DNA from: Clostridia bacterium
GTDB lineage: Bacteria > Bacillota > Clostridia > Christensenellales > Aristaeellaceae
NCBI GenBank assembly: GCA_030530315.1
Contig: JAUMVG010000001.1
Coordinates: forward strand, 121,557-185,556
Direction of reading: 5' to 3'
Length of the DNA: 64,000 bases
In this document: positions 56,976 through 63,821 of the stretch, one piece after another
How positions within the stretch are numbered: position 1 is the first letter of the stretch
How the letters are laid out: every line of letters starts with the position of its first letter
Position numbers and translations under genes: made by a program
Notes under the pieces: model-generated
Databases searched by the model: none
What the model was told of the DNA's origin: nothing
What the model saw: the letters and a program-made list of their open reading frames with translations, nothing else

Positions 56976-57004
56976 TTGCATTTGGAGGATGGGTGTGATA
57001 CAAT
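56976..57004 (+). promoter_or_regulatory. Promoter of the cobalamin-riboswitch transcript
   Basis: TTGCAT (56976-56981), 17-base spacer, TACAAT (56999-57004). It lies 35-40 bases before the riboswitch. Confidence 0.8.
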
Positions 57005-57040
57005 ACATTCGTCTGCGAAAAGCGGATAATGACAACTGCA

Positions 57041-57314
57041 CAGGACATGAGGTGCGTCCGGCGCGTGCGCCGGGCGGTAATAGGGAAACAGGTGAAAATC
57101 CTGTACGAACTCGTCACTGTAACGGGTGAGGGCAACGCAACACGTGTCACTGGTGTCAAACCGGGAAGGCCGCGGCGTCCGATGACCCCCGAGTCAGGAA
57201 ACCTGCCTTATGTCGGTACGGGGACAGCCGTCCCGGATCACGAGCAACTGATCGTACCGCGCGTGGGTTCTTTGCCCACGATCGTTCTCTTGCCCGTGGG
57301 CAGGAGCTTTTTAT
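57041..57314 (+). promoter_or_regulatory. Cobalamin (adenosylcobalamin-type) riboswitch with intrinsic terminator
   Basis: Conserved blocks in order: GGTAATAGGGAA (57076-57087), stem CAGGTGAAAATCCTG (57089-57103), CACTG twice (57115-57119 and 57148-57152), GGGAAGGC (57163-57170) and the B12 box, GAGTCAGGAA-ACCTGCC (57191-57207). A terminator stem TGCCCAC (57273-57279) / GTGGGCA (57296-57302) with T5 at 57308-57312 follows, next to an alternative pairing with GTGGG upstream. Cobalamin binding should favour the terminator and lower expression of the downstream secreted CbiK-like gene. Confidence 0.93.
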
Positions 57315-57382
57315 TTGCTCCCGCATGCCGCCGGCTTCCGCGTCGGGTGCGAACAAACCCACGAGTGAGAGGAGCGTTCACA

Positions 57383-58315
57383 ATGAAGAAACTGTTGGCT
57401 ATCCTGGTTGCCCTGGTGCTGGCGCTGAGCTGCTTTGCCGCCTTCGCCGAGGAAGAGGACGAGGAAAACTACGAGACCGGCGACGCCACCCTGGACAACG
57501 TGCTGAACCAGGATGACATCGGCGAGAAGGAACTGCTGGTCGTGTCCTTCGGCACCAGCTTCAACGACAGCCGCAGGCTGACCATCGGCGGCATCGAGTC
57601 CGCCATCGCCGAGGCGATTCCCGACTACAGCGTGCGCCGCGGCTTCACCGCCCAGATCATCATCGACCACGTGGAGCGCCGCGACGGCATCCACATCGAC
57701 AACATGACCGAGGCTCTGGACCGCGCCGTGGCCAATGGCGTGAAGACCCTGGTCGTGCAGCCCACCCACCTGATGCATGGCTTCGAGTACGACGACGTGG
57801 TGGCCGAGCTGGCCGAGCGCGCCGAGGAATTCGAGACCATCGTCGTCGCTGACCCGCTGCTGACCTCCGACGAGGACTTCGACCGCGTGGCCGACATCAT
57901 GATCGACCTCATGAAGGACTATGACGACGGCAACACCGCCATCGTGTACATGGGCCATGGCACCGAGCATGAGTACAACAAGATCTACGCCCAGATGCAG
58001 GAAGTCCTGACCTCCAAGGGCGCCGAGAACTACTATGTGGGCACCGTCGAGGCCGCGCCGTCCGTGGACGACGTCCTCGAGGCCATCAAGGACAAGGGCT
58101 ACACCCGCGTCGTGCTGCGCGACATGATGGTCGTCTGCGGCGACCACGCCAACAACGACATGGCGGGCGACGAGGAGGATTCCTGGAAGAGCATCTTCAC
58201 CGCTGCCGGCTATGAGGTCGAGTGCGTGCTGGAGGGCCTGGGCCAGGTTCCCGAGATCCAGCAGATCTACGTTGAGCACGCCCAGGCGGCCGTGGCTCAG
58301 GTGGAAGCCGAATAA
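57383..58315 (+). CDS. Secreted sirohydrochlorin cobaltochelatase-like protein (CbiK family)
   Basis: A 310-residue chelatase-fold protein of the anaerobic CbiK family, which inserts Co2+ (or Fe2+) into a tetrapyrrole. CbiK is normally cytosolic, but this one has a clear signal peptide: MKKLLAILVALVLALSCF with AFA cleavage near 24, then an acidic linker. The chelatase core shows LLVVSFGTSFNDSRR (about 52), the His/Glu-containing VVQPTHLMHGFEYDDV (about 128) and AIVYMGHGTEHEYNKIY (about 190) with the two expected metal-site His, and VVCGDHANNDMAGDEEDSW (about 253). ATG 57383 has a GAGAGGAG site upstream. It lies immediately behind the cobalamin riboswitch, so expression is repressed by cobalamin. 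No other cobalamin biosynthesis gene adjoins it. Confidence 0.9.
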   Translation: MKKLLAILVALVLALSCFAAFAEEEDEENYETGDATLDNVLNQDDIGEKELLVVSFGTSFNDSRRLTIGGIESAIAEAIPDYSVRRGFTAQIIIDHVERRDGIHIDNMTEALDRAVANGVKTLVVQPTHLMHGFEYDDVVAELAERAEEFETIVVADPLLTSDEDFDRVADIMIDLMKDYDDGNTAIVYMGHGTEHEYNKIYAQMQEVLTSKGAENYYVGTVEAAPSVDDVLEAIKDKGYTRVVLRDMMVVCGDHANNDMAGDEEDSWKSIFTAAGYEVECVLEGLGQVPEIQQIYVEHAQAAVAQVEAE

Positions 58316-58331
58316 TCGAATCGATGCACTG

Positions 58332-58408
58332 CCGGGACGGCTCGCGGGCCGTCCCGGTTCGGCTTTTCGACGCGCGGACAGCGGATGCCGGCGCGCCGAA
58401 AAGCCGAA
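58332..58408 (+). terminator. Two overlapping strong hairpins after the CbiK-like gene
   Basis: Stem CCGGGACGGC / GCCGTCCCGG (58332-58341 / about 58348-58357), then TTCGGCTTTTCG (58358-58369) pairing with CGAAAAGCCGAA (58397-58408). The TTTT between them fits termination of the first stem. Read-through to the next gene may be partial. Confidence 0.7.
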
Positions 58409-58462
58409 GCCGCGTTACAGTGTGGCCGGCAATAGAACGCTCTTGAATTGAGGAGATGCCTT

Positions 58463-59305
58463 ATGAAGAAAATTGCGATCCTTCTGGCCCTTGCCCTGGC
58501 ATTGCTGACAATGGTCTCCGCCCTGGCCGAGGGCGACCACTCCGGCGTCGCGGACGCCTCGGAGATGACGGACGTGGTGGACGTGGTGGAGGAGGGCATG
58601 GAGCCCGTCTACGCCGAGAGCCTGAACGACGGCACCTATGAGGTGGCCGTGGACTGCTCCTCCTCAATGTTCAAGATCGTCGGCTGCGCGCTGACGGTGG
58701 AGAACGGGGAGATGACCGCGCTGCTGACCCTGAAGAGCGATGCCTACCTGTACCTGTTCCCCGGCACCGCCGAGGAGGCCTCCGCGGCCGCGGAGGAGGC
58801 CCTGGTCGTGGTCGATCCCGAAGACCACACCTGCGCCATTCCGGTACCCGCCCTGGACGCCGGCGTGGACTGCGCGGCATACAGCGCCCGCAAGCAGGTC
58901 TGGTATCCCCGCACGCTGCTGTTCCGCGCCGACTCCCTGCCGGAATCTGCCTGGAACGCGGCCAGCCTGGTGACGGCCCAGACCCTGGGCCTGGCCGACG
59001 GCGACTACACCGTGGAAGTAGCCCTGGAGGGCAGCGGCAAGACGACGCTGGAGACCCCCGCGACGCTGCACGTGGCGGACGGCGTCTGCACCGCGGACAT
59101 CGTGTTCAGCACGAAGAAGATCGACTATGTGATCGTGGACGGCGAAAAGTACCTGCCCACCAACACCGAAGGCAACGCCGCCTTCACCGTGCCGGTGAGC
59201 GGCTTCGACCGCAAGCTGGCCATCACCGTGGACAGCACGGCCATCAAGCCCGCCACGGAAGTGGTCTACACGATGACCTTCGATTCCGCCAGCATCGCCC
59301 AGTGA
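58463..59305 (+). CDS. Secreted two-repeat protein, probable tetrapyrrole- or metal-handling partner
   Basis: A 280-residue exported protein with a signal peptide (KKIAILLALALALLTMVSA, cleavage after ALA). The mature part has two related beta-rich repeats. The first is built on LNDGTYEVAVDC, CALTVENGEMTALLTLKS and DAYLYLFPG; the second on ADGDYTVEVALEGSGKT, ATLHVADGVCTADIVFST and DYVIVDGEKYLP. The closing FDRKLAITVDSTAIKPATEV is a third strand set. This DGTYTV..L pattern recalls NEAT-like or iron-complex-associated modules, but I cannot name a family. It follows the secreted CbiK-like gene by 147 bases and may be co-regulated by the cobalamin riboswitch through read-through. GAGGAG precedes ATG 58463. 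Confidence 0.7.
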   Translation: MKKIAILLALALALLTMVSALAEGDHSGVADASEMTDVVDVVEEGMEPVYAESLNDGTYEVAVDCSSSMFKIVGCALTVENGEMTALLTLKSDAYLYLFPGTAEEASAAAEEALVVVDPEDHTCAIPVPALDAGVDCAAYSARKQVWYPRTLLFRADSLPESAWNAASLVTAQTLGLADGDYTVEVALEGSGKTTLETPATLHVADGVCTADIVFSTKKIDYVIVDGEKYLPTNTEGNAAFTVPVSGFDRKLAITVDSTAIKPATEVVYTMTFDSASIAQ

Positions 59306-62396: not shown

Positions 62397-62422
62397 GGGT
62401 GTGCTCGAAAGGAGGATGTGCC

Positions 62423-63220
62423 ATGGATTATGTTGTCGTCGGCGGCGACGAGCGCTACGCGCAGCTGGCACGGCTGCTGAAAAAGAGGGGGAAGCGCGTC
62501 GGGCTCTGGGGGCGGGAGCCCGTGCCGGGTGTCCCCACGGTGGAGAAAGCAGAGCTCAAAACGGCCAAATGCCTGATCGCCGGATGCCCGGCAAAGGTGA
62601 AGGACGGCATATTGCCGCCGGAGGCGCTGCTGAAGCGCATGGGCGACGGCGCGAAGCTGACGCTCTGCGGGCCGAAGCACCCGACGATGGGAGACGATCG
62701 GGTGATCGACCTTTGGGCGGATGAGGCGTTGATTCGTGAAAATGCCGCGCTGACCGCCGAGGGCGCCGTTTCGGCGGCCATGCGGGCTTCGACCCGCGCC
62801 CTGTGCGATATGCGCTGCCTGATCATCGGCTGGGGGAGGATCGGCCGGGCGCTGACGGAGCGTCTGTCGGCTCTGGGCACGGCGGTGACCGTGGCATCCC
62901 GGAGGAGCCAGGGCAGAAACAGCGCCGTGGAGCGCGGAGCGGAAGCCGTGGATACCCATGCCATTGCCGATGTCGTTTCGGGGTTTGACCTGATCTGCAA
63001 CACCGCGCCGGAGATGGTTCTGGATGAGGCGGCCCTGGGCAAGGTCGACCGGGACGCGATGATCATCGACCTGGCGAGCCCACCCTACGGGGTCGACCTG
63101 CACGCCGCCTGGAAGCTAGGGCTGCGCGCCTGGCGGGAACCGGCGCTGCCGGGGCGATACTGTCCGGAGAGCGCCGCGATGGCGCTGCTGCGGTCGATGG
63201 CGCGGCAGGGCATCCTGTGA
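62423..63220 (+). CDS. spoVFA: Dipicolinate synthase subunit A
   Basis: A 265-residue subunit of dipicolinate synthase, the mother-cell enzyme that makes the dipicolinic acid of the spore core from dihydrodipicolinate. The N-terminus DYVVVGGDERYAQLARLLKK is diagnostic. The centre holds a Rossmann dehydrogenase loop, CLIIGWGRIGRALTERLSA (about 134). The C-terminus has DLICNTAPEMVLDEA and LASPPYGVDLHAAW. ATG 62423 has AGGAGG 8 bases upstream; an earlier in-frame start lies before that site. It is a little shorter than the B. subtilis subunit (about 297). spoVFB follows 19 bases later, under the sigma-K-like promoter. Confidence 0.95.
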   Translation: MDYVVVGGDERYAQLARLLKKRGKRVGLWGREPVPGVPTVEKAELKTAKCLIAGCPAKVKDGILPPEALLKRMGDGAKLTLCGPKHPTMGDDRVIDLWADEALIRENAALTAEGAVSAAMRASTRALCDMRCLIIGWGRIGRALTERLSALGTAVTVASRRSQGRNSAVERGAEAVDTHAIADVVSGFDLICNTAPEMVLDEAALGKVDRDAMIIDLASPPYGVDLHAAWKLGLRAWREPALPGRYCPESAAMALLRSMARQGIL

Positions 63221-63239
63221 CATGATGGGAGGAATCAGC

Positions 63240-63821
63240 ATGATCGATATGACGGGAACGCGCGTAGGCTGCGCGATGACGGGGTCTTTCTGTACCTTCA
63301 AGGGTGTCTTTGAGGCGTGGGAGGCGCTGGCCGCCACCGGGGCGGAGCTGACGCCCATACTCTCCTTCAACGCGGCAGCGACGGATACGCGATTCGGCCT
63401 TGCGGAGCAGACGCGGGAGCGCCTGCGGGAAATCACCGGCAGGGAGCCGCTGCGCACCCTTGCCCAGGTGGAGCCGATCGGGCCGAAGAAGCTGCTGGAC
63501 GCGCTGGTCATCGCGCCGTGTACGGGCAACACCCTGGCGAAGCTGGCGGCGGGCATCGCGGATACGCCGGTGACGCTGGCGGCGAAATCCCATCTGCGCA
63601 ACGGACGGCCGGTGGTGATTGCGGTCTCCAGCAATGACGCGCTGGGACAGAACGCCCAGAACCTGGGACGGCTGCTGACGACGCGGAACATGTTCTTTGT
63701 GCCCTTCCGGCAGGATGATCCCCAGGGAAAGCCGAATTCCCTGGTGGCACGGTTCGAAAAGCTGCCGGAAACGCTGGCAATGGCGCTGGAAGGGCGGCAG
63801 ATCCAGCCTTTGATAGGGTGA
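63240..63821 (+). CDS. spoVFB: Dipicolinate synthase subunit B
   Basis: A 193-residue flavoprotein-fold subunit that forms dipicolinate synthase with SpoVFA. The phosphate-binding start is GCAMTGSFCTFKG (about residues 9-21). The conserved LVIAPCTGNTLAKLAAGIAD lies near 90, followed by VTLAAKSHLRNGRPVVIAVS and MFFVPFRQDDPQGKPNSLVA, typical of the family. Length is standard. ATG 63240 follows GGGAGG. Its stop is 58 bases ahead of the rRNA-like promoter. The pair marks the organism as an endospore former. Confidence 0.95.
   Translation: MIDMTGTRVGCAMTGSFCTFKGVFEAWEALAATGAELTPILSFNAAATDTRFGLAEQTRERLREITGREPLRTLAQVEPIGPKKLLDALVIAPCTGNTLAKLAAGIADTPVTLAAKSHLRNGRPVVIAVSSNDALGQNAQNLGRLLTTRNMFFVPFRQDDPQGKPNSLVARFEKLPETLAMALEGRQIQPLIG

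What the first reader, a model, noticed from the sequence alone, without database searches (positions are those of the whole stretch)
56976..59305. Cobalamin-riboswitch locus encoding a secreted CbiK chelatase and a secreted partner
A textbook cobalamin riboswitch with its own promoter and terminator controls a CbiK-family cobaltochelatase with a strong signal peptide. CbiK acts on sirohydrochlorin in the cytosol in known anaerobic cobalamin synthesis; exported forms are known mainly as periplasmic CbiK in Desulfovibrio. This organism appears Gram-positive. The next gene encodes a second exported protein of two DGTY/DGDY-type beta repeats. Together they could capture, metallate or strip cobalt tetrapyrroles outside the cell when cobalamin is scarce. 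That function is inference; riboswitch, chelatase fold and signal peptides are seen directly.
Basis: partly seen in the sequence, partly recalled or inferred. Interest (0 to 1): 0.85.

Follow-up and report, generated by a model that had tools for sequence, protein, structure and literature searches.

The report
Exported cobalt-inserting system for B12 synthesis
In this gut-type bacterium a vitamin-B12-sensing RNA switch controls an exported cobalt-inserting enzyme and an exported partner protein; across related bacteria the pair goes with the ability to build B12, and it may bring in an early B12 building block from outside the cell.

Summary
A full cobalamin riboswitch (57033-57224) precedes an exported CbiK (57383-58315) and an exported two-domain protein (58463-59305). 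The partner is NEAT-like: the window copy is below Pfam's cut-off, three orthologs are above it. Of 79 loci seeded by the partner, 70 hold CbiK, all with an export signal; 10 have both in one ORF; 57 hold a FecCD-type permease; 60 of 66 testable loci have the riboswitch directly upstream. In the window's family the partner occurs in 25 of 25 genomes with CbiD and 0 of 11 without. Of 29 corrin-making genomes lacking HemC, 24 have only exported CbiK.

Best reading: a B12-repressed system that loads a scavenged tetrapyrrole with cobalt at the surface and imports it for corrin synthesis, a testable route for 'tetrapyrrole precursor salvagers'. Export, linkage and co-occurrence are shown; substrate and chemistry are inferred. 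Against it: CbiL is below cut-off in 16 of 25 HemC-lacking genomes tested, and the window's own genome has the early pathway and cytosolic CbiKs.

The parts
56976..57004 (+). promoter-like TTGCAT-17-TACAAT (extended -10 TGA TACAAT)
   Evidence: read by eye; below the threshold of the scan
57033..57224 (+). cobalamin riboswitch aptamer RF00174
   Evidence: 107.7 bits, full model; present in 24 of 24 relatives' loci that fetched for an exported CbiK
57262..57316 (+). expression platform: two hairpins, the second (57287-57306) followed by TTTTTATTT, an intrinsic-terminator-like site
57383..58315 (+). exported CbiK (P0001, 310 aa); signal peptide 57383-57448; CbiK domain residues 49-304; active-site codons E135 57785-57787, H192 57956-57958, H255 58145-58147
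58331..58358 (+). 12-bp hairpin between the two genes, possible attenuator or processing site
58463..59305 (+). exported two-domain NEAT-like protein (P0002, 280 aa); signal peptide 58463-58528
58610..58942 (+). NEAT-like domain 1 (residues about 50-160)
   Evidence: strands E57-E155; ortholog L123 matches PF05031 here above the cut-off
58985..59296 (+). NEAT-like domain 2 (residues about 175-278)
   Evidence: strands E180-E273; window copy E 0.0019; orthologs L119 and L140 above the cut-off

Best explanation
This is the secreted front end of a B12-repressed acquisition system for corrin-ring synthesis. When cobalamin is scarce the riboswitch lets the transcript run on. The cell then exports (i) a CbiK that keeps its metal-binding and catalytic residues and (ii) a two-domain NEAT-like protein. 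I infer that the NEAT-like domains hold a tetrapyrrole at the cell surface, most likely sirohydrochlorin or a close relative of it; that the exported CbiK loads it with cobalt there; and that a substrate-binding protein of the PF01497 fold, often with its own NEAT-like domain, passes it to a FecCD-type ABC importer to enter the cytosolic cbi pathway. SHOWN by sequence: export signals, riboswitch, active-site residues, pairing and fusion of CbiK with NEAT-like domains, linkage to SBP-FecCD and cbi genes in relatives, co-occurrence with corrin synthesis. INFERRED: the riboswitch's response, the ligand, cobalt insertion outside the membrane, the importer's cargo, the direction of flow. Sub-claims: a supply system for corrin synthesis, about 0.85; cobalt inserted outside, about 0.5; cargo at the sirohydrochlorin level, about 0.4.
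For: (1) Within the window's family (36 genomes, G000-G035) the NEAT-like family is in 25 of 25 CbiD+ and 0 of 11 CbiD- genomes. Exported CbiK is in 23 of 25 CbiD+ genomes (not G016, G021), and no CbiK of any kind is in the 11. Fisher p 1.7e-9 and 1.3e-7, not corrected for kinship. (2) Of 79 loci seeded by the partner, 70 hold CbiK, 10 in one ORF with NEAT-like domains, 57 with FecC in the same run, 27 with two or more other corrin/cobamide genes. (3) Export signal in 70 of 70 of these CbiK loci (hydrophobicity and inspection) and in 24 of 24 from relatives; 82 exported and 23 cytosolic CbiKs separate on a quick tree with 3 changes against a shuffled mean of 21.1. (4) E135/H192/H255, aligned with E89/H145/H207 of Salmonella CbiK (numbering counted; their catalytic role recalled), are invariant in 87 of 87 exported and 23 of 23 cytosolic rows. 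(5) In 57 CbiD+ genomes HemC is missing from 29; none of the 29 has HemB. Of the 29, 24 have only exported CbiK, 3 also one without export signal, 2 none. (6) CbiX was looked for in 31 of the 57 (19 of the 29): every match falls on a CbiK place. (7) In the window's family cytosolic CbiK follows HemC: 15 of 15 HemC+ and 0 of 10 HemC-. (8) Riboswitch directly upstream in 60 of 66 loci with more than 700 bp of upstream sequence.
Against: The window's own genome has hemA, hemB, hemL, hemC, cobA/hemD and cbiL and two CbiKs without signal peptide, so there the system is an addition, not a necessity. CbiL (TIGR01467) reaches its cut-off in only 9 of 25 HemC- genomes tested, against 13 of 16 HemC+ (one of the 16 misses, G084, is a fragment at 147.1 of 163.25 bits), so a Co-sirohydrochlorin cargo would be a dead end in the others unless CbiL is replaced or the cargo is already C20-methylated; no replacement was seen by eye in the four loci read. 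Three HemC- genomes also keep a CbiK without export signal. G016 has CbiD but no CbiK; G084 has NEAT-SBP but no CbiK. Outside the family (24 genomes of the order) the rule is looser: G040, 51% complete, has NEAT-like and exported CbiK but no CbiD match; G055 and G057 are CbiD+ without a NEAT-like match. NCBIfam's equivalog cut-off for sirohydrochlorin cobaltochelatase is not met (227.3 of 400 bits). The closest solved structure is called heme-binding. No ligand pocket was tested and the fold was not compared.
Confidence: 0.5

Rival explanations
1. Surface corrinoid (B12, cobinamide) capture: CbiK and NEAT-like domains have become binding proteins that hand corrinoids to a BtuFCD-like importer.
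For: Cobalamin riboswitch; SBP of PF01497 and FecCD permease are the BtuF/BtuC families; adjacency to cobamide assembly genes cobT/cobU/cbiB/cobQ in some loci.
Against: In the window's family the system is absent from all 11 CbiD- genomes, which cannot make the ring and would gain most from B12 uptake; whether those 11 use B12 was not tested. The own genome has other riboswitch-led sets that look like BtuFCD by eye. Catalytic residues are invariant, which a pure binding role need not keep.
Confidence: 0.15
2. Cobalt acquisition: exported CbiK and NEAT-like proteins trap Co(II), or a cobalt complex, and the importer delivers cobalt for cytosolic insertion.
For: Tracks corrin synthesis, a main user of cobalt; an own-genome cytosolic CbiK sits behind a riboswitch with an Opp/Nik-type ABC transporter, which suggests that metal supply is under this control here.
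Against: 24 of 29 HemC- genomes have no CbiK without export signal, and in the 19 of these 29 searched for CbiX none was found apart from CbiK, so bare cobalt in the cytosol could not be inserted by a known class II enzyme there. It does not explain NEAT-like domains.
Confidence: 0.15
3. Heme or other porphyrin acquisition, like FetB/IhtB of Porphyromonas gingivalis: exported chelatase and NEAT proteins take iron or porphyrin from heme.
For: Closest solved structure by sequence is FetB, 168.6 bits; NEAT domains are best known from heme uptake (recalled); a 2026 review (passages) says FetB exchanges metals in porphyrins.
Against: Cobalamin riboswitch upstream in 60 of 66 testable loci, linkage to cbi genes, and 0 of 11 in CbiD- relatives. 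Whether these genomes use heme was not tested.
Confidence: 0.1
4. Signal-peptided CbiK is a plain biosynthetic CbiK; the leader is a gene-calling artefact or has no consequence.
For: Domain and active site are ordinary CbiK; in 24 of the 31 genomes only one CbiK place, or two in one ORF, was found.
Against: Leader or lipobox in 70 of 70 and 24 of 24 loci, lipoprotein-type signals in many of them, fusion to NEAT-like domains, and a tree position apart from most cytosolic CbiKs.
Confidence: 0.05

Closest known systems
FetB (IhtB) of Porphyromonas gingivalis, PDB 9b86
   Same: CbiK-family protein and nearest solved sequence; exported by recall. The species is reported to lack the steps to precorrin-2 (Shelton et al., PMC6461909, passages).
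   Different: Gram-negative, studied for heme and Mn-porphyrin (PMC13402209 passages; PMC13227078 passages). The passages read name no NEAT partner and no cobalamin riboswitch; its locus was not examined here. That FetB and IhtB are one protein is recalled.
Periplasmic CbiK of Desulfovibrio vulgaris, PDB 2xvx
   Same: CbiK fold; 115.2 bits to the window protein (that 2xvx is the periplasmic form is recalled; PMC4063343, one passage, speaks of a periplasmic cobaltochelatase of that species). In Desulfovibrio one B12-element is reported to control cbiK-cbiL and btuCDF (PMC545781 passages).
   Different: Lower similarity; no NEAT-like partner named in the passages read. Its role is recalled as heme or iron related and was not read here.
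NEAT-domain proteins (PF05031; Isd-type heme relays, recalled)
   Same: Exported beta-domains repeated in one chain; three orthologs pass the Pfam cut-off; one-, two- and SBP-fused forms occur.
   Different: Under cobalamin riboswitches and tied to CbiK and cbi genes; the window copy is below the Pfam cut-off; heme ligands not tested.
BtuFCD cobalamin importers
   Same: SBP of PF01497 and FecCD permease in the linked operons.
   Different: Some SBPs carry an extra NEAT-like domain, and the set is encoded with exported CbiK and often corrin-ring genes.
Tetrapyrrole precursor salvagers (Shelton et al., ISME J 2019, PMC6461909)
   Same: Corrin pathway kept, early tetrapyrrole steps lost: 29 of 57 CbiD+ genomes here lack HemC and HemB. 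A rumen OTU with 8 of 10 corrin enzymes and 0 of 5 tetrapyrrole enzymes was reported in PMC12654859 (passages; there classed as a cobinamide salvager).
   Different: That work defines the phenotype; the passages read name no uptake route. The window's own genome is not a salvager.

Membership tests
Cobalamin riboswitch RF00174 | full-length covariance-model match over the gathering score | tested here: met
   107.7 bits against 31.5
CbiK family PF06180 | match over the curated cut-off | tested here: met
   270.5 bits against 26.2
CbiK family PF06180 | Glu/His/His metal and catalytic residues (roles recalled) | tested here: met
   E135, H192, H255 aligned with E89, H145, H207 of 1qgo
Sirohydrochlorin cobaltochelatase equivalog NF047852 | score over NCBI's curated cut-off | tested here: not met
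   227.3 bits against 400; not filed as this equivalog
Sirohydrochlorin cobaltochelatase equivalog NF047852 | cobalt insertion into sirohydrochlorin | not testable with these tools
   needs an enzyme assay
NEAT PF05031 | score over Pfam's gathering score, window protein | tested here: not met
   19.1 bits against 32.8
NEAT PF05031 | score over the gathering score in orthologs | tested here: met
   3 of 17 proteins scanned singly pass: L119 34.0, L123 44.2, L140 35.8 bits; 8 more have a NEAT match below it; 6 have none at the thresholds used (L116, L136, L174 at E 0.001; L114, L149, L151 at E 0.0001). 20 of 31 A3 members match at E 0.1 or better
NEAT PF05031 | NEAT fold by structure comparison | not tested
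NEAT PF05031 | heme or tetrapyrrole binding | not testable with these tools
   needs purified protein
FetB/Iht type uptake system | exported CbiK-like protein with an ABC importer | tested here: inconclusive
   importer linked in relatives, not beside the window pair; the make-up of the Iht system is recalled; a TonB receptor was not searched
Tetrapyrrole precursor salvager | corrin pathway present, early tetrapyrrole genes absent, window's own genome | tested here: not met
   G000 has HemB, HemC, CobA, CbiL
Tetrapyrrole precursor salvager | same, genomes of relatives and of the seeded loci | tested here: met
   29 of 57 CbiD+ genomes lack HemC and HemB; 27 of these 29 carry an exported CbiK

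The most novel reading that the evidence does not exclude
A tetrapyrrole 'cobaltophore' cycle. Cells that make sirohydrochlorin export it, load cobalt onto it outside with exported CbiK, and re-import Co-sirohydrochlorin through NEAT-SBP/FecCD, so that the cobalt-insertion step of B12 synthesis is extracytoplasmic; neighbours without HemC and CobA take the same molecule as cheaters or cross-fed partners. Not excluded: 10 of 12 HemC+ genomes in the 31-genome set have only exported CbiK and no separate CbiX, and an ABC-2 ATPase-permease pair lies with a NEAT-like gene and often sirC in the hem/cob operons of the window's genus and beside CbiK in G055 and G083. Open escape: SirC-type enzymes in those genomes might insert cobalt in the cytosol, as siroheme synthases can (recalled).
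Probability: 0.15. Interest if true: 0.95.

Novelty: new variant of a known kind. Interest (0 to 1): 0.8.

Why it matters
Bacteria that keep the corrin pathway but lack the steps to precorrin-2 have been described for years, with P. gingivalis the cited early case; the passages of PMC6461909 that I read leave open how they take up the precursor. This locus points to a specific gene set behind cobalamin riboswitches (exported CbiK, NEAT-like protein, NEAT-SBP, FecCD) found in many rumen and gut Clostridia. It makes the question testable with a few purified proteins and one feeding experiment. If cobalt is inserted outside the cell, a core step of B12 synthesis would be a surface reaction and its product a shareable good.

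Tried and rejected
Chance association of riboswitch and CbiK: rejected, 24 of 24 relatives' loci and 60 of 66 testable named loci. Partner as a generic Ig-like repeat: weak Big_13 hits in 8 of 31 members (best 0.0023), but NEAT in 20 of 31, best 3.1e-11. Partner in solved structures by sequence: none at E 1 or with the A3 profile at E 10. Partner in viral contigs: three pattern matches, no relative. A separate CbiX to rescue cytosolic cobalt insertion: none in 31 genomes; the window's family was not searched for CbiX. A CbiL substitute in the operons of CbiL-less genomes: the unlabelled ORFs in L109, L106, L112 and L135 read as BtuR-, CbiC-, CobD-, CobS- and CobC-like by eye, plus one short unnamed ORF and shadow ORFs; no family scan was made of them.

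Literature: searches on cobalamin riboswitch + CbiK + signal peptide (0 papers), sirohydrochlorin + lipoprotein + cobalt + Lachnospiraceae (unrelated by title), sirohydrochlorin + metallophore, NEAT domain + cobalamin riboswitch, cobaltochelatase + riboswitch + lipoprotein + uptake (judged unrelated from listing), tetrapyrrole precursor + salvag + transporter + cobamide (passages of 3 read), and wider ones (listings, few opened). This library holds open-licence papers only, so absence from it is weak.

Dropped before counts: 13 of 79 loci with 700 bp or less upstream were left out of the riboswitch denominator (4 of the 13 have it). Of the 6 testable loci without it, L115, L124 and L130 have cbiJ just upstream, and L128, L149 and L172 have no clear reason. 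The CbiK of L142 is split into two ORFs; the second piece was not counted apart. A broken CbiK at a contig end in G040 (L020) was not among the 24 relatives' loci. G070's second CbiK (C54) was not checked for an export signal. For the tree 120 CbiK domains gave 110 distinct ones, thinned to 105; the CbiK-like protein of G007:C66 is not among its rows. Eight rows, domains of tandem ORFs or of proteins with long leaders, were reset by hand from 'cytosolic' to 'exported' after reading their N-termini. G090's second CbiK, without export signal, groups inside the exported clade. The riboswitch model R1 has only 19 base pairs, so it is mostly a sequence profile.
Full report
WHAT IS THERE. The window holds a complete cobalamin riboswitch at 57033-57224 (RF00174, 107.7 bits) followed by a terminator-like hairpin at 57287-57306 with a T-run. 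Then come an ORF of 310 aa at 57383-58315 and an ORF of 280 aa at 58463-59305. The first is a CbiK (PF06180, 1.7e-80) with a leader peptide. The second also has a leader and two beta-domains. No promoter upstream of the riboswitch reached the scan's threshold; TTGCAT-17-TACAAT at 56976-57004 is read by eye. A 12-bp hairpin lies between the genes, so their co-transcription is likely but not shown. In the window's genome this riboswitch is one of 10. Others lead sets that look like BtuFCD, a hem/cob operon, a cytosolic CbiK with an Opp/Nik-type ABC transporter, and corrinoid methyltransferase genes (gene names mine, by eye unless a family call is cited).

THE CbiK. Its nearest solved relatives are FetB (9b86, 168.6 bits), Salmonella CbiK (1qgo, 166 bits) and a Desulfovibrio chelatase (2xvx, 115.2 bits) (species recalled). 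E135, H192 and H255 align with E89, H145 and H207 of Salmonella CbiK and are invariant in 87 of 87 exported and 23 of 23 cytosolic sequences. It does not reach NCBI's equivalog cut-off (227.3 of 400 bits), so I do not call it a proven sirohydrochlorin cobaltochelatase.

THE PARTNER. The window copy matches NEAT (PF05031) below cut-off. Of 31 family members, 20 match NEAT at E 0.1 or better. Of 17 proteins scanned singly, three pass the gathering score, one in domain 1 and two in domain 2, and six show no NEAT match at the thresholds used. A model from a 31-sequence alignment has mean pLDDT 87.5 and pTM 0.79, with two beta-domains. The structure comparison could not be run. I therefore call it NEAT-like: a member of the superfamily by its orthologs, with binding untested.

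A CONSERVED SYSTEM. In 60 genomes, the window's own and its nearest kin, the partner family is found in 26 and CbiK in 27. One search fetched 24 relatives' loci with an exported CbiK; 24 of 24 have the riboswitch and a signal peptide or lipobox. A scan of one genome for each of 84,980 species with the partner's alignment gave 79 loci (at most 80 are returned, so there may be more), by their titles mostly Clostridia and many from rumen or gut samples (Lachnospiraceae, Oscillospiraceae, Ruminococcus, Blautia and others). CbiK lies in 70 of 79; in 10 of these it shares one ORF with NEAT-like domains, and G040 adds another fused lipoprotein, with a broken frame near its end. All 70 have an export signal by hydrophobicity and inspection. 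FecC is in the same gene run in 57 of 79, and 27 of 79 hold two or more further corrin or cobamide genes. Three SBPs scanned belong to PF01497, with room for a NEAT-like domain in front; one of the three has a weak Pfam NEAT match, and their front parts match the partner. A riboswitch model built from 28 sequences (A4) places the riboswitch directly upstream on the same strand in 60 of 66 loci with more than 700 bp of upstream sequence. On a quick tree of 105 CbiK domains the 82 exported ones are nearly one clade: 3 changes of state, shuffled mean 21.1, 0 of 500 as low.

WHAT IT GOES WITH. In the window's family (36 genomes) the NEAT-like family is in 25 of 25 CbiD+ genomes and 0 of 11 CbiD- ones. 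Exported CbiK is in 23 of 25 (not G016 or G021), and no CbiK occurs in the 11. Among the 24 further genomes of the order the picture is thinner: G040 (51% complete) has CbiK and NEAT-like but no CbiD; G055 is CbiD+ with an exported CbiK and one without leader but no NEAT-like match; G057 is CbiD+ with a CbiK without leader and no NEAT-like match; the other 21 have none of the three. In the family, then, the system follows corrin-ring making. The 11 CbiD- relatives cannot make the ring and, if they use B12 (not tested), would be the ones to need uptake, which argues against a pure B12 receptor. Cytosolic CbiK follows HemC: 15 of 15 HemC+ and 0 of 10 HemC-.

THE KEY PATTERN. I tested 57 CbiD+ genomes: 31 reached through named loci, chosen by me from the 79 (31 of 31 CbiD+), 25 of the window's family and G055. 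HemC is missing from 29 of 57; none of these 29 has HemB, while 21 of 28 HemC+ have it, one of them as a fragment. In the 31, HemC and CobA agree in 29 (11 both, 18 neither). Of the 29 HemC- genomes, 24 have only exported CbiK; 3 (G060, G083, G090) have in addition one without an export signal; 2 (G016, G084) have none. In the 31, no CbiX separate from CbiK was found; the family was not searched for it. So many genomes keep corrin-ring enzymes, lack HemC and HemB, and have their only CbiK outside the membrane, often beside an importer. The plainest reading is that a tetrapyrrole is loaded with cobalt outside and then imported.

RESULTS AGAINST. CbiL reaches its cut-off in 22 of 41 genomes: 9 of 25 HemC- and 13 of 16 HemC+ (G084 just misses as a fragment). 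In the other HemC- genomes Co-sirohydrochlorin alone would not be enough. Either the cargo is further along (Co-factor III), CbiL is replaced, or the model is wrong there. The L109 operon (G065) shows the case: SBP-FecCD-CbiK-NEAT-SBP and then cbiH, cbiET, cbiF, cbiG, cbiD, BtuR-like, CbiC-like, cbiA, CobD-like, cbiJ, without CbiL. The window's own genome has the early pathway and two cytosolic CbiKs, so here the exported pair is a supplement, and no importer lies beside it. Ten of 12 HemC+ genomes of the 31 also have only exported CbiK. This either points to an export-and-reimport cycle (novel case) or means that another enzyme inserts cobalt inside. MAG gaps, kinship and seeding by the partner limit all counts; the p-values ignore kinship.

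COMPARISON WITH WHAT IS KNOWN. Papers were seen as passages only. Shelton et al. (PMC6461909) define tetrapyrrole precursor salvagers, mostly Firmicutes, and cite P. gingivalis as lacking the steps to precorrin-2; the passages name no uptake route. A review (PMC8123684) repeats the class sizes, precorrin-2 salvagers 0.6%. A rumen study (PMC12654859) reports an OTU with 8 of 10 corrin and 0 of 5 tetrapyrrole enzymes. A 2026 review (PMC13402209) says FetB exchanges metals in porphyrins; the FetB paper itself is not held. In Desulfovibrio one B12-element controls cbiK-cbiL and btuCDF (PMC545781). The system works like a heme-uptake relay moved to corrin precursors; it is not filed as a member of Isd, Iht or BtuFCD. 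No paper describing it was found in the searches.

VERDICT. It is a new variant of known tetrapyrrole-acquisition kinds. Interest is high because it gives an old open question a named and testable gene set.

Noticed in passing
L126, L147, L154, L156, L174: Exported proteins with two CbiK domains in tandem; four of the five (not L126) are also fused to NEAT-like domains.
   Followed up: partly
L154 7069-7599 and L156 402-932: Two cobalamin riboswitches on opposite strands close together; in L154 one faces NEATL-SBP-FecCD and the other a double CbiK with NEAT-like fusion.
   Followed up: no
L071 4729-15497 (own genome C60): Riboswitch-led operon hemA-hemB-hemL-hemC-cobA/hemD-cbiL-ABC-2 ATPase-ABC-2 permease-cytosolic cbiK-NEAT-like with C-terminal membrane anchor-sirC; the ABC-2 pair recurs beside NEAT-like and often sirC genes in the genus.
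   Followed up: partly
L090 to L094, L098, L231: A second type of exported CbiK (about 370-410 aa) with a long spacer after the leader and a one-domain NEAT-like partner; also in [Ruminococcus] faecis.
   Followed up: partly
16 HemC- genomes, e.g. G018, G024, G026, G065: Corrin-ring genes present but CbiL below cut-off; what starts the pathway there is unexplained.
   Followed up: partly
L074 8352-11089 (own genome C87): Riboswitch upstream of a methyltetrahydrofolate-corrinoid methyltransferase-like gene and a corrinoid activation-like gene (names by eye).
   Followed up: no
window 62399-63821: Two genes that look like dipicolinate synthase subunits by eye, suggesting a spore former.
   Followed up: no
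G016, G021, G084: Exceptions: G016 has CbiD but no CbiK; G021 has only cytosolic CbiK; G084 has NEAT-SBP but no CbiK.
   Followed up: no
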